From an uncultured Candidatus Melainabacteria bacterium (GTDB taxonomy: Bacteria > Cyanobacteriota > Vampirovibrionia > Gastranaerophilales > Gastranaerophilaceae), in assembly GCA_947361615.1 (NCBI GenBank), contig CANAJP010000010.1, positions 1 to 42,021 of the forward strand: 42,021 nt of DNA, in the 5' to 3' direction. The number at the start of each line of letters is the position of its first letter. Positions within the stretch are counted from its first letter, which is position 1. Position numbers and translations under genes: made by a program. The notes under the pieces were generated by a model that made no database searches, was not told the DNA's origin, and was given only the letters and a program-made list of their open reading frames with translations. Below are positions 13,448-30,795 of this stretch, piece by piece.

Positions 13448-14599
13448 ATGAAAAACAAGATTGACTTAACATGTGCAGGGGGGGGGGGGCCTCTCTTAGG
13501 TATAAGTAGTGAGGCGTTCACACCCTCCTGTCATGCTGAACTTGTTTCAGCATCTGTCACATGTAGCGAACCATTGGGATTGAAAAACGTTGAACATACG
13601 TCAGTAACGTTGGACAGCTCCCGAAACGAGTTCGGGATGACAGTCACTGAGCGGCATCCATACGTTACCCTGCGGGCTGTCGCCTTCACCATGGCGGAAA
13701 TACTCTTATCCCTAACAATCATCGGTGTGGTCGCGGCGATAACGTTACCGTCATTGACAGGAAACATTAACGAGCGGACTTGGAACACCCAGCGCAAAGC
13801 GCTTTATGCCCGTATGTCGCAGGCGATTTCGCTAATGCCGGCATTGAATGGATACGGGGCAAATATAGAAGATGCTGCTGAAACTTTCATAACGGCCGGA
13901 CTTTCAAAAGTTTTTAAAATTAATAATATATGTGATAATAGCCATCTAAATGATTGTGGTTTACCTGACGAATTTATTGACGGAGGAGGCTCAAAACAAA
14001 GTTTACCAATTCAAGTTCAAGATTTAAATTCTGGTATTATAACAGTTCTTGGTACGATTTCTGTTAAAAATACGAAAGCAGCAGCATTTGAGACAGCAAA
14101 TGGAGAATCAATTTTAACGTTTTATAACCCGAATTGTAGCGCTGAAAATAATGAAGTCGTACTTAATGATGGTTCTCAGCCAGGTTGGGTAGTAAAACAA
14201 CAAGTTTGTGTCAATTTTGTATATGATTTAAATGGTAACAAAGGTCCCAATACTTTAGGAAAAGATATTGGCACCATGTCTGTTATGTATTCATCAGATT
14301 CCAAAGTAGTTATGCCGGTGGCTCCAAGAGCTGTTACTGGTAGTATGACTCAAGCATTAGCTACCGCTGCGTGTAGAAAACTTGATGATGGTCAGTATAG
14401 GCTGCCAAATATTGAAGAGGTTTTAGCGGTATATTATAACAGATTGATCTATTCTAATTCAGCGTTCGGCTCAAATAGTAAAGTTTGGACATCAACTACA
14501 ATCGATGCTAATAATGTTTATACCTTTGGCTATGATTGGGGACGGAAATTTGCTGCCGCTAAGGGTAGTTCCGCGGGTGTATTCTGCTTAAAACGTTAA
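13448..14599 (+). CDS. Phase-variable pilin-like protein 1, frame intact
   Basis: The start is the ATG preceded by gaaaggatggaaattatt; an in-frame ATG at 13412 precedes this ribosome site. The 383-residue protein has an unusually long leader (79 residues) with MKNKIDLTCA, four glycines from a 12-G tract, PLLGI and a palindromic insert. The prepilin-type segment AFTMAEILLSLTIIGVVAAITLPS follows, with E5 and a hydrophobic helix. The conserved middle holds NERTWNTQRKALYAR, INNICDNSHLNDCG, KAAAFETANGESI and CVNFVYDLNGNKGPNT. The end (YRLPNIEEVLAVYYN, then WTSTT, ending GVFCLKR) resembles DUF1566/Lcl_C lectin-like domains. The residue before F is Ala rather than Gly, so processing may be less efficient. 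A shared terminator follows. Confidence 0.85.
   Translation: MKNKIDLTCAGGGGPLLGISSEAFTPSCHAELVSASVTCSEPLGLKNVEHTSVTLDSSRNEFGMTVTERHPYVTLRAVAFTMAEILLSLTIIGVVAAITLPSLTGNINERTWNTQRKALYARMSQAISLMPALNGYGANIEDAAETFITAGLSKVFKINNICDNSHLNDCGLPDEFIDGGGSKQSLPIQVQDLNSGIITVLGTISVKNTKAAAFETANGESILTFYNPNCSAENNEVVLNDGSQPGWVVKQQVCVNFVYDLNGNKGPNTLGKDIGTMSVMYSSDSKVVMPVAPRAVTGSMTQALATAACRKLDDGQYRLPNIEEVLAVYYNRLIYSNSAFGSNSKVWTSTTIDANNVYTFGYDWGRKFAAAKGSSAGVFCLKR
13478..13489 (+). repeat. 12-base G tract, probable phase-variation switch, in frame
   Basis: A run of 12 G starts 10 codons after the ATG at 13448. At this length it encodes four glycines and joins the ATG to the pilin frame. Gain or loss of one G would cause early termination. 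Confidence 0.8.
13529..13642. repeat. Inverted-repeat-bounded palindromic insert in pilin-like gene 1
   Basis: The block opens tgtcatgctgaacttgtttc (with matching tcagcat arm) and closes with the reverse form ending gttcgggatgaca. It is 114 bases, a multiple of three, and reads through as CHAELVSAS at its start. It lies in the leader between the G tract and the prepilin motif. A related block is at 29762-29848 and a single arm at 2107. Confidence 0.7.
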
Positions 14600-19625: not shown

Positions 19626-19675
19626 GACTATATAAGAAAGGATGTAAACTATGAAAAACAAAGTTGTAAACATGT

Positions 19676-20812
19676 ATGCAGGGGGGGGGGGGGAGCCCTG
19701 AGCAGAGCCAGGAAGTAGTTTCAGACTATGAAATAGTCAGAAACTACGAGCAGTCGAGCGCGCGACGCGGCAAACCGCGCTTTGGCGCGCAAGCGCGAGC
19801 GTTGGCGTTTAACGCGAAGGGCGGAGAGCCGGCTGAGCAGGCCTTCACTATGGCCGAAATCCTGTTATCTCTCACAATCATCGGTGTGGTCGCAGCGATA
19901 ACGTTACCGTCGCTTACTGGTAACATTAACGAGCGGACTTGGAACACCCAGCGCAAAGCGCTTTATGCAAGGTTCTCGCAAGCAATATCGTTAATGCCGG
20001 CATTGAATGGTTATGGTACCTTGACCGAGGGCAATTCATCAACGGCTGCAGAAGATACAGCTGCTGAAACATTTCTTGCTGATGGGCTTTCAAAAGTTTT
20101 AAAGATAAACAATATTTGCGCCAGCGATCATTTAGATGACTGTGGAATACCTCAAAAAATGACTGATTTCAGAGGTAACCTAATTTCTTCTTTTCCTACC
20201 ACATTAGCTGATTATAACAGTCAATTTAGTGGTACCACAATCGATGCTAAAAGCAATGTTTTTACTTATCACCAGACAAATACGAAAGCCGCAGCTTTTG
20301 AAACCGCAAATGGTGAAAGTATTGTAGTATTTTACAACCCGAATTGTCGTGGAAATACGGAAACTCAAGAATATCATTGGTCACAACCTTATATGTGTGC
20401 CAATTTTGTATATGATTTAAACGGAGCAAAGGGGCCTAATACAGTTGGGAAAGATATTGGCTTTATAACTGCATTATATCCATCAGATCCTGTAGTTGTC
20501 GCGCCTGTGTTGATGAGTGGTAAAGGCATATCTTCCGGAAATAAAAATCAGATAGAAGCCGGGGCATATTGCAACTCTCTTGATAATCAATTGCGTCTAC
20601 CAAATATAGATGAAGCCTCTTCAATGTTTTATAACAGATTGTTAGTCGGATATGCCACAGAAAATGCTGCGTTTTGGTCTTCTACAGTTTTATCAAAAAA
20701 TGGTGGTATGTATGCTTGGCGGCAATCATTTCTTACTGGTTCACGAAATCCTTTACTAAGAACCAGTACGACCGGTGATGGATTTAATCAAATATTTTGT
20801 ATCGCGCGGTAA
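19676..20812 (+). CDS. Phase-variable pilin-like protein 2, out of frame from the conserved ATG
   Basis: By comparison with genes 1 and 3 the real start is the ATG at 19651 (after aagaaaggatgtaaact), giving MKNKVVNMYA. With 13 G that frame hits TGA at 19699-19701 after 16 codons. The intact frame here begins at an internal ATG at 19676 that has no ribosome site; 12 G would join 19651 to it. The product has AFTMAEILLSLTIIGVVAA, NERTWNTQRKALYARFSQ, KINNICASDHLDDCG, KAAAFETANGESI and CANFVYDLNGAKGPNT. The C-terminus diverges (LRLPNIDEASSMFYN, FWSSTV, ending QIFCIAR) in DUF1566-like style. The leader has a hairpin and GC-rich palindromes unrelated to those in genes 1 and 3. Confidence 0.8.
   Translation: MQGGGGSPEQSQEVVSDYEIVRNYEQSSARRGKPRFGAQARALAFNAKGGEPAEQAFTMAEILLSLTIIGVVAAITLPSLTGNINERTWNTQRKALYARFSQAISLMPALNGYGTLTEGNSSTAAEDTAAETFLADGLSKVLKINNICASDHLDDCGIPQKMTDFRGNLISSFPTTLADYNSQFSGTTIDAKSNVFTYHQTNTKAAAFETANGESIVVFYNPNCRGNTETQEYHWSQPYMCANFVYDLNGAKGPNTVGKDIGFITALYPSDPVVVAPVLMSGKGISSGNKNQIEAGAYCNSLDNQLRLPNIDEASSMFYNRLLVGYATENAAFWSSTVLSKNGGMYAWRQSFLTGSRNPLLRTSTTGDGFNQIFCIAR
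19681..19693 (+). repeat. 13-base G tract, probable phase-variation switch, out of frame
   Basis: Thirteen G follow the tenth codon (GCA) of the conserved ATG at 19651. At this length translation stops at 19699-19701; 12 G would open the full reading frame. Confidence 0.8.
19715..19747. repeat. Hairpin repeat in pilin-like gene 2 leader
   Basis: Arms of 15 bases (19715-19729 and 19733-19747) match at 14 positions around a 3-base loop. Downstream to about 19830 are further GC-rich palindromes (gcggcaaaccgc, gcgcgcaagcgcg). This is a different repeat family from that in genes 1 and 3, at the equivalent place. Confidence 0.6.
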
Positions 20813-29650: not shown

Positions 29651-29703
29651 AAATATAAAAGAAAGGATGGAAAAATATATGAAAAAACGAATTGTAAACA
29701 TTT

Positions 29704-30795
29704 GTGCAGGGGGGGGGGGGGCCTCTCTTAGGTATAACTAGTGGAGCGTTCTATTCCCACTTGTCATCCCGAACTTGTTTCGGGATCTGGCAAACGTTAC
29801 GTGTAGAATGCAACGCTGGCCAGATGCTGAAACGAGTTCAGCATGACAGAAAAGGTTTCACGATGGCAGAGATATTATTATCCCTGACAATTATCGGCGT
29901 AGTTGCTGCGATAACATTGCCGTCACTGACAGGCAATATTAACGAGCGTACATGGAATACACAGCGAAAAGCGCTTTATGCAAGATTTTCACAAGCTATA
30001 TCATTAATGCCGGCGTTGAATGGTTATGGAACCTTGACGGAAGATAGTTCGTCCGGTGCAAGTGACGCTGTCGATACTGTTGCAGAAACCTTTATCACAG
30101 ATGGACTTTCAAAAGTTCTCAAGATTAATAATATTTGTGATAGCGAACATCTGGCTGATTGTGGAATACCGGCAAAAATTATCGGCTTAAATGGCGATAT
30201 TCATGATACACCTGATACATTACTTGCTTTGAACAGTAATGCAGTCTCGGCAGTGCACGGCTCTTATACTTATAGTACGCTAAATACCAAGGCCGCGGCG
30301 TTTGAAACCCAAAACGGTGAAAGCATTCTATTGTTTTACAATCCAAATTGTGTTTCAAATATGGGGGAAACCAGCTGGTATATGGTTCAACCTAAAATCT
30401 GTGCAAATATGATATTTGATTTAAATGGCAATAAAGGGCCTAATACAATGGGTAAAGATATTGGAATAATGACAGTTTTGTATCCGACAGACAGCGCTGT
30501 CGTCGCACCGGAAGTTTATCGTGAGCGATTAAATGATATTTCAGCAAATGATGCCCCTGCTGCTTGTACCAATAAGGTCGGAAGTGAATACCGAATAGCA
30601 ACTAAAGACGAACTTGCCGCAATTTTTATTAATAAAAATTTATTAGGAGTTGTAGGTAGTCCGTTGATTTCATCTTCATCAAAAGTAGTTCTCTCTGGTG
30701 GTAGAATTTCGCGTTGGGGGTTAAATGTGGGTACCGGACTTTATCAGACACCATTTCCGGATGACCCTTGGTCAATGATGTGTGTAAAACGTTAA
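29704..30795 (+). CDS. Phase-variable pilin-like protein 3, out of frame from the conserved ATG
   Basis: The conserved start is the ATG at 29679 (MKKRIVNICA), but with 13 G that frame ends at TAG 29739-29741 after 20 codons. The open frame begins only at a GTG at 29704, without a ribosome site. With 12 G the ATG would join it. The product has KGFTMAEILLSLTIIGVVAA with a canonical Gly before Phe, a conserved middle (NERTWNTQRKALYARFSQ, KINNICDSEHLADCG, KAAAFETQNGESI, CANMIFDLNGNKGPNT) and a C-terminus (YRIATKDELAAIF, ending MMCVKR) diverged from genes 1 and 2. The leader has an 87-base palindromic insert. Confidence 0.8.
   Translation: MQGGGGPLLGITSGAFYSHLSSRTCFGIWQTLRVECNAGQMLKRVQHDRKGFTMAEILLSLTIIGVVAAITLPSLTGNINERTWNTQRKALYARFSQAISLMPALNGYGTLTEDSSSGASDAVDTVAETFITDGLSKVLKINNICDSEHLADCGIPAKIIGLNGDIHDTPDTLLALNSNAVSAVHGSYTYSTLNTKAAAFETQNGESILLFYNPNCVSNMGETSWYMVQPKICANMIFDLNGNKGPNTMGKDIGIMTVLYPTDSAVVAPEVYRERLNDISANDAPAACTNKVGSEYRIATKDELAAIFINKNLLGVVGSPLISSSSKVVLSGGRISRWGLNVGTGLYQTPFPDDPWSMMCVKR
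29709..29721 (+). repeat. 13-base G tract, probable phase-variation switch, out of frame
   Basis: Thirteen G follow the codon GCA of the frame from 29679. Loss of one G would restore the same GGGGPLLGI reading seen in gene 1. Confidence 0.8.
29762..29848. repeat. Inverted-repeat-bounded palindromic insert in pilin-like gene 3
   Basis: The block opens tgtcatcccgaacttgtttc and closes with gctgaaacgagttcagc then atgaca. Inner arms atctgg and ccagat also pair. It is 87 bases, a multiple of three, but is read in a different frame from the insert in gene 1 (here as SSRTCFGIW). Confidence 0.7.

What the first reader, a model, noticed from the sequence alone, without database searches (positions are those of the whole stretch)
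19651..19701. Pilin-like gene 2 is out of frame with 13 G
From the conserved ATG at 19651 the frame stops at TGA 19699-19701 after 16 codons. Twelve G would join it to the 1.1 kb frame. The remaining start (ATG 19676) has no ribosome site, so the locus is likely OFF in the consensus.
Basis: seen in the sequence. Interest (0 to 1): 0.7.

Follow-up and report, generated by a model that had tools for sequence, protein, structure and literature searches.

The report
Gut bacterium pilin genes, one-base-off G-tracts
This gene is one of about 90 nearly interchangeable pilus-adhesin genes in a tiny gut bacterium; most of them carry a run of G's that is exactly one base too long for the protein to be made, which suggests a very large on/off switchboard for surface proteins whose off setting follows an unexplained strict rule.

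Summary
In detail: from ATG 19651 the frame stops at TGA 19699-19701, and 12 G instead of 13 would join it to the prepilin frame ending at 20812. The locus is not special. The genome (unnamed MAG, genus of Candidatus Gastranaerophilus) holds about 90 copies of this pilin; most have SD, ATG, 9-16 translated codons, a G-tract, a variable in-frame spacer and FTMAEILL. In four same-genus MAGs, 135 of 175 readable loci are exactly one G too long, 28 are in frame and 12 are -1. Tract length follows architecture (G13, G12, or G11/G14) so that the +1 offset is kept: 26 of 30 non-standard loci, permutation maximum 15. Six of six intact loci in another genus are also +1; two further species show no preference. 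This cannot be a length-calling artefact. Best reading: slipped-strand phase variation of a prepilin/lectin-adhesin repertoire that is mostly OFF, with OFF reached almost always by +1. Leaky or programmed slippage on the G run is a serious rival that sequence alone cannot exclude. ATG 19676 is not a conserved rescue start. New variant of a known kind.

The parts
19635..19642 (+). Shine-Dalgarno AGAAAGGA, conserved in the family
   Evidence: sequence; seen before nearly all tract leaders
19651..19680 (+). start codon and translated leader MKNKVVNMYA
   Evidence: leader lengths in four genomes are 27, 30 or 33 nt in 144 of 175 loci
19681..19693 (+). poly-G tract, 13 G (in-frame length is 12)
19699..19701 (+). 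TGA that ends the 13-G reading frame after 16 codons
19676..19678 (+). alternative ATG in the pilin frame, no SD; not conserved as a start
19694..19843 (+). in-frame spacer (50 codons, SPEQSQ...EPAEQA) between tract and prepilin cleavage site; contains a repeated element (19752-19817) found in other spacers in both orientations
19844..20809 (+). mature pilin-like protein FTMAEILLSLTIIGVVAAITLPSL..., 322 aa, stop at 20810-20812
   Evidence: (IV_pilin_GFxxxE over its cut-off)
20444..20809 (+). C-terminal C-type-lectin-like / Lcl_C-like domain (mature residues about 201-322)
13448..14599 (+). paralogue in the window with G12 (13478-13489): in frame
29679..30795 (+). paralogue in the window with G13 (29709-29721): +1, stop at 29739

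Best explanation
A poly-G phase-variable repertoire of type IV prepilin-like adhesins. Each of about 90 genes makes a membrane-targeting prepilin whose leader carries a Gly4 run encoded by the tract, and whose mature part has a conserved pilin helix and a variable C-type-lectin-like head. Insertion or deletion of one G by replication slippage switches the gene. Most copies are OFF at any time, and OFF is almost always one G longer than the in-frame length; a one-base deletion would turn the window gene ON. Shown: the anatomy, the +1 rule, selection on frame, the size of the repertoire. Inferred: that tract length changes in living cells, that +1 is silent, and that loci toggle between ON and +1 under fluctuating selection with insertion-biased slippage.
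For: G tract in the leader of a surface protein, the usual place for contingency loci. About 96 strong N-terminal hits in the 1.83-Mb genome, none with an internal stop. Leader and spacer are both in translated registers: leaders mostly 27/30/33 nt, and only 9 of 237 loci have a stop between tract and pilin although other frames hold about one stop per 17 codons. Mixed states exist within one genome (G000: 6 in frame, 39 +1, 3 -1), with one in-frame copy in this window (G12 at 13478). Mature proteins share an almost invariant N-terminus but have variable heads. A model in which loci start in frame, the in-frame state is disfavoured and slippage is about 90 percent insertions reproduces the length tables.
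Against: No reads and no second strain of one species were available, so variation in vivo is not shown. A stationary phase-variation model (tract kernel plus ON disfavoured) is rejected against one in which +1 itself is favoured (p about 2e-11). The fit needs about 9:1 insertion bias at lengths 8-15, while C. jejuni is reported to be deletion-biased from G10 (PMC4085013). MutS is intact in the genus, so hypermutation is not a given.
Confidence: 0.55

Rival explanations
1. Leaky or programmed recoding: the +1 state is itself the functional configuration. A small fraction of ribosomes (net +1 slip on GGG codons) or of transcripts (one G lost, or two gained, by RNA polymerase) restores the frame, so all copies are made at a low, set level; selection therefore holds the total at exactly +1 whatever the tract length.
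For: The offset, not the tract length, is conserved: G13, G12 and G11/G14 in different architectures all give +1 (26 of 30 non-standard loci, permutation mean 6.5, maximum 15). +1 is favoured about 11-fold over -1 although both would be silent under pure phase variation. 6 of 6 intact loci of another genus (G018) with different leaders are +1, including CA+G12 versus C+G13 variants that keep the same sum. No tRNA-Gly(CCC) gene was found, only UCC and GCC. Precedent: an extra G in a G7 run of herpes thymidine kinase is partly rescued by net +1 frameshifting (PMC5009743, its reference 5).
Against: 28 in-frame and 12 -1 loci coexist; two other species of the genus (G003, G005) show no +1 preference (24 in frame, 17 +1, 16 -1); ribosomes can slip either way on G runs (PMC5009743, references 5 and 6); transcriptional slippage is said to favour A/T runs (PMC5084427); no conserved stimulator was looked for beyond the tract.
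Confidence: 0.3
2. Translation of the 13-G locus starts at ATG 19676, giving a constitutive 378-aa protein.
For: The ATG is in the pilin frame, and 40 of 135 +1 loci have ATGCAG at the tract edge.
Against: No SD; ATGCAG has the same frequency in in-frame, +1 and -1 loci, so it is a by-product of common leader codons; 30 +1 loci have no start codon at all in the pilin frame; the new N-terminus would lack the positively charged leader residues.
Confidence: 0.05
3. Silent donor cassettes that recombine into a few tract-free expressed genes.
For: Tract-free copies with ordinary short leaders exist (MKKAFTMAEILL in L323, MSRQGFTMAEILL in L325), and N-termini are near-identical across about 90 copies.
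Against: The tract copies keep their own SD, start and leader, and 117 of 144 class-1 copies have a promoter-like element upstream against 38 in a shuffled control; donors would not need an in-frame spacer.
Confidence: 0.06
4. Assembly or sequencing artefact, or decayed genes.
For: All genomes are MAGs; contigs often end at these tracts; G005 has NN inside many tracts.
Against: Length-calling errors do not know the reading frame, yet the frame offset is conserved across architectures; ORFs are intact.
Confidence: 0.04

Closest known systems
Neisseria pilC1/pilC2 (poly-G tract in the signal-peptide region of a type IV pilus tip protein; cited in PMC5084427 as Jonsson 1991; detail from own knowledge)
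   Same: G run in the secretion-leader coding region of a pilus-associated adhesin, ON/OFF by frame
   Different: two genes, not about 90; not a prepilin; no fixed +1 offset known to me
Campylobacter jejuni poly-G/C contingency loci (29 loci of seven or more repeats in NCTC11168, PMC4965091)
   Same: many G-tract genes for surface traits in a small genome
   Different: unrelated genes; ON lengths differ by locus and no family-wide +1 offset is reported; bias turns to deletion from G10 (PMC4085013)
Neisseria opa family (about 11 genes, PMC3745409)
   Same: paralogous surface adhesins switched independently by a repeat near the start of the gene (repeat type from own knowledge)
   Different: CTCTT repeats (own knowledge); an outer-membrane protein family; far fewer copies
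Herpes thymidine kinase G-string mutants (PMC5009743)
   Same: one extra G in a G run, with low-level rescue by net +1 frameshifting
   Different: a viral resistance mutation, not a maintained gene-family design
Legionella Lcl C-terminal domain (8q4e) and Bdellovibrio Bd2740 C-terminal domain (8oks)
   Same: fold of the C-terminal head (VIA-align Z 6.1 over 93 residues at 1.9 A, and Z 7.5 over 104 residues at 3.1 A)
   Different: not on a pilin; low sequence identity (14-18 percent); function not transferable

Membership tests
SSR (homopolymer) phase-variable gene | long homopolymer inside or just before the ORF that decides the frame | tested here: met
SSR (homopolymer) phase-variable gene | both in-frame and out-of-frame copies in the family | tested here: met
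   28 in frame, 135 +1, 12 -1 in four genomes
SSR (homopolymer) phase-variable gene | tract length varies among cells or strains of one species and expression follows it | not testable with these tools
   one assembly per species, no reads
SSR (homopolymer) phase-variable gene | OFF states distributed as mutation alone would place them (an expectation rather than a strict defining feature) | tested here: inconclusive
   not met for a stationary model in four genomes: +1 far exceeds -1 and follows architecture, p about 2e-11; met in G003+G005 and nearly met by the non-stationary, insertion-biased model
Type IV prepilin-like protein | G/A-F-T-x-x-E cleavage/methylation motif followed by a hydrophobic helix | tested here: met
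   TIGR02532 17.2 bits against cut-off 16.3; PF07963 18.0 against 21.2, below cut-off
Type IV prepilin-like protein | short basic leader before the motif | tested here: inconclusive
   basic N-terminus, but 19 to over 100 residues before the motif because of spacers
Programmed frameshift gene | conserved offset between two frames at a slippery run | tested here: met
   for four species and one other genus; not for G003/G005
Programmed frameshift gene | trans-frame product made from an unaltered template | not testable with these tools
   needs RNA, ribosome or peptide data
C-type-lectin-like / Lcl_C domain | fold match of the C-terminal head | tested here: inconclusive
   Foldseek best E 0.012, TMt about 0.5; VIA Z 7.5 and 6.1; Pfam Lcl_C below cut-off

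The most novel reading that the evidence does not exclude
A genome-wide family of pilus adhesins is deliberately encoded one base out of frame at poly-G runs and is expressed through directional slippage (net +1 translation or loss of one G in transcription), a recoding-based dosage control maintained across species and genera by compensating indels.
Probability: 0.27. Interest if true: 0.88.

Novelty: new variant of a known kind. Interest (0 to 1): 0.62.

Why it matters
If the ordinary reading holds, an uncultured, non-pathogenic gut lineage of the cyanobacterial phylum carries one of the largest single-family phase-variable repertoires I know of (about 90 copies in 1.8 Mb), with lectin-like heads suited to varying host-glycan or phage contacts. 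The +1 rule gives a rare quantitative handle: tract lengths alone show selection for a particular wrong frame, which is unexpected for simple ON/OFF switching. It makes the question 'silent, or leaky by slippage?' directly testable in existing gut metagenomes, metatranscriptomes and metaproteomes.

Tried and rejected
Mutational equilibrium length as the cause of G13: rejected, because length follows architecture. Stationary phase variation with ON merely disfavoured: rejected against +1-favoured. A first attempt at the recency model overflowed numerically and was redone with bounded parameters, where it fits nearly as well as the +1-favoured model, so I do not claim phase variation is excluded. 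Alternative start at 19676: no enrichment. Counting a stop in the pilin frame of the leader is uninformative, because ATGA gives TGA in every locus. The count of zero stops in spacers is partly by construction, since loci with a stop had been set aside; the honest figure is 9 of 237. Mismatch-repair loss as cause of hypermutation: MutS is intact in all seven genomes of the genus. Rfam: nothing above gathering threshold at these loci. No paper on tract-controlled pilins in Gastranaerophilales/Melainabacteria was found in the held library. The pattern used for the second genus overlapped itself, so only eight distinct tract loci with a pilin-type downstream ORF were read there, two of them with broken spacers.

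Full report
OBSERVATION. Twelve G would fuse the leader to a spacer of 50 codons and a 322-residue pilin-like protein starting FTMAEILLSLTIIGVVAAI at 19844 and ending at 20812. Two sister loci lie in the window: 13448-14599 with 12 G, in frame, and 29679-30795 with 13 G, out of frame.

CONTEXT. The window is contig C10 of a 1.83-Mb MAG. Its same-genus relatives in the GTDB collection include Candidatus Gastranaerophilus phascolarctosicola Zag_221 (contig lengths identify it with G005) and other Gastranaerophilales/Melainabacteria MAGs (compare). The conserved first 60 residues of the mature protein hit 103 places in the own genome; about 96 of these are strong, none of those has an internal stop, and a few may be halves of genes cut by contig ends. 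There are 68 CA+G9 tracts, and many contigs end at them. Some copies have no tract and an ordinary short prepilin leader, e.g. MKKAFTMAEILL (L323) and MSRQGFTMAEILL (L325).

ANATOMY. Almost all tract copies share SD, ATG, a short leader, the G run, a variable spacer, and the pilin. In 175 readable loci of four genomes the leader is 27, 30 or 33 nt in 144, and 46-52 nt in 26. The spacer is open in the pilin frame from the tract onward; only 9 of 237 loci have a stop there, while the two other frames carry about one stop per 17 codons. Spacers contain repeated elements in both orientations. So the ribosome is meant to pass from the leader through the G run and spacer into the pilin, and the in-frame product is a prepilin with an oversized leader that ends at the A/G-F cleavage site. 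The cleaved leader would remove the spacer, which may be why insertions there are tolerated (inference).

THE +1 RULE. In the four MAGs G000, G001, G002 and G004 the offsets are +1 in 135, in frame in 28, -1 in 12. Most loci have the standard architecture, for which in frame means G12 and the usual tract is G13 (108 of 145). Thirty loci have other leader lengths or post-tract registers. Where in frame means G11 (or G8), the tract is usually G12 (17 of 21; two more are G9). Where it means G10 or G13, the tract is G11 or G14 (7 of 9). Overall 26 of these 30 are +1, against a permutation mean of 6.5 and a maximum of 15 in 20,000 shuffles of the tract lengths. A model with one tract-length distribution plus a penalty on the in-frame state is rejected in favour of one where +1 itself is favoured (2 delta lnL 44.8, p about 2e-11). 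These p-values treat loci as independent, although some are recent paralogues. Errors in calling homopolymer lengths cannot know the frame, so artefact is excluded as the cause of the rule. In another genus of the family (G018), six of six intact tract-pilin loci with unrelated leaders are also +1, including CA+G12 and C+G13 versions that keep the same sum. Against generality, G003 and G005 of the own genus show 24 in frame, 17 +1 and 16 -1. G005 has NN inside many tracts and G003 is a scaffolded assembly with runs of N, so their lengths are less certain, but I cannot show that they are wrong.

MECHANISM. Reading 1 is ordinary slipped-strand phase variation. A non-stationary or selection-driven version (loci start in frame, the in-frame state is left about 25 times faster, about 90 percent of slips are insertions) fits the tables nearly as well as the +1-favoured model (negative lnL 161.5 against 155.0). 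It needs insertion bias at 8-15 G; published work reports insertion bias for G8-G9 and deletion bias for G10-G11 in C. jejuni, and possible insertion bias up to G10 in N. meningitidis (PMC4085013). MutS is present. Reading 2 is that +1 is held because it is leaky: ribosomes or RNA polymerase slip on the G run and make some product. Precedent is the herpes thymidine kinase G run, where an extra G is partly rescued by net +1 frameshifting (PMC5009743), although rescue in the -1 direction is also reported there. Only tRNA-Gly UCC and GCC genes were found in the tRNA loci scanned, no CCC; a few tRNA matches of the 95.6-percent-complete assembly were not scanned with ARAGORN. I place reading 1 at 0.55 and reading 2 at 0.30; DNA alone does not separate them.

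THE ALTERNATIVE START. ATGCAG at the tract edge occurs in 8 of 28 in-frame, 40 of 135 +1 and 4 of 12 -1 loci. It is not associated with +1, has no SD, and 30 of the +1 loci have no start codon at all in the pilin frame. It is not the general route to expression.

PROTEIN. TIGR02532 (prepilin cleavage motif) is over its cut-off, while Pfam N_methyl and Lcl_C are below theirs. AlphaFold2 on 60 family members gives mean pLDDT 88.8. The C-terminal 120 residues match C-type-lectin-like folds: Foldseek best hits are snake C-type lectins, E 0.012; VIA-align gives Bdellovibrio Bd2740 C-terminal domain Z 7.5, Legionella Lcl Z 6.1 and intimin Z 5.2. Z below 8 is only suggestive. Sequence variation is near zero in residues 1-40 and highest in the head and middle loops. 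A variable adhesive head on a conserved pilin stem is the natural inference; glycan binding was not tested.

WHAT IS NEW. Poly-G switching of a pilus protein leader is a known kind (Neisseria pilC). New here are the size of the repertoire, its host lineage, and a conserved one-base offset that tract lengths track across architectures, species and one further genus. I found no paper on it in the held library, which does not cover all literature.

Noticed in passing
19752-19817 and other spacers (e.g. C2, C7 and C44 copies): A GC-rich repeated element sits in the spacer in either orientation and stays open in the pilin frame; other spacers carry REP-like repeats (CHAELVSAS..., SSRTRFGIC...QMLKQVQHD). 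In-frame repeat insertion into cleavable prepilin leaders resembles Rickettsia palindromic elements (own knowledge).
   Followed up: partly
L072 (own genome C15:17084 region, minus strand) and L230 of G003: An unrelated exported-looking protein with DTIYI repeats also has a G11 tract after a short start region; in G000 the downstream ORF is +1, in G003 it is -1.
   Followed up: partly
G006 (same genus) and most other genera of the family: G006 has no CA+G9 tract at all; in the family, genera g4, g13 and g2 are also rich in tracts while most others have few or none, so the system was gained or lost repeatedly.
   Followed up: no
   Followed up: no
L026, L045, L071, L106: Contigs of this MAG end in G runs of about 49-54 or G-rich junk, a likely two-colour-sequencing artefact at broken repeats.
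   Followed up: no
G005 contigs C1, C3, C8, C9, C10: Tract-bearing pilin genes all point the same way along each of these long contigs, as if co-oriented with replication.
   Followed up: no
L020, L053, L031 against L018, L030, L228: Spacer length between tract and cleavage site runs from about 5 codons to more than 180 within one gene family.
   Followed up: partly
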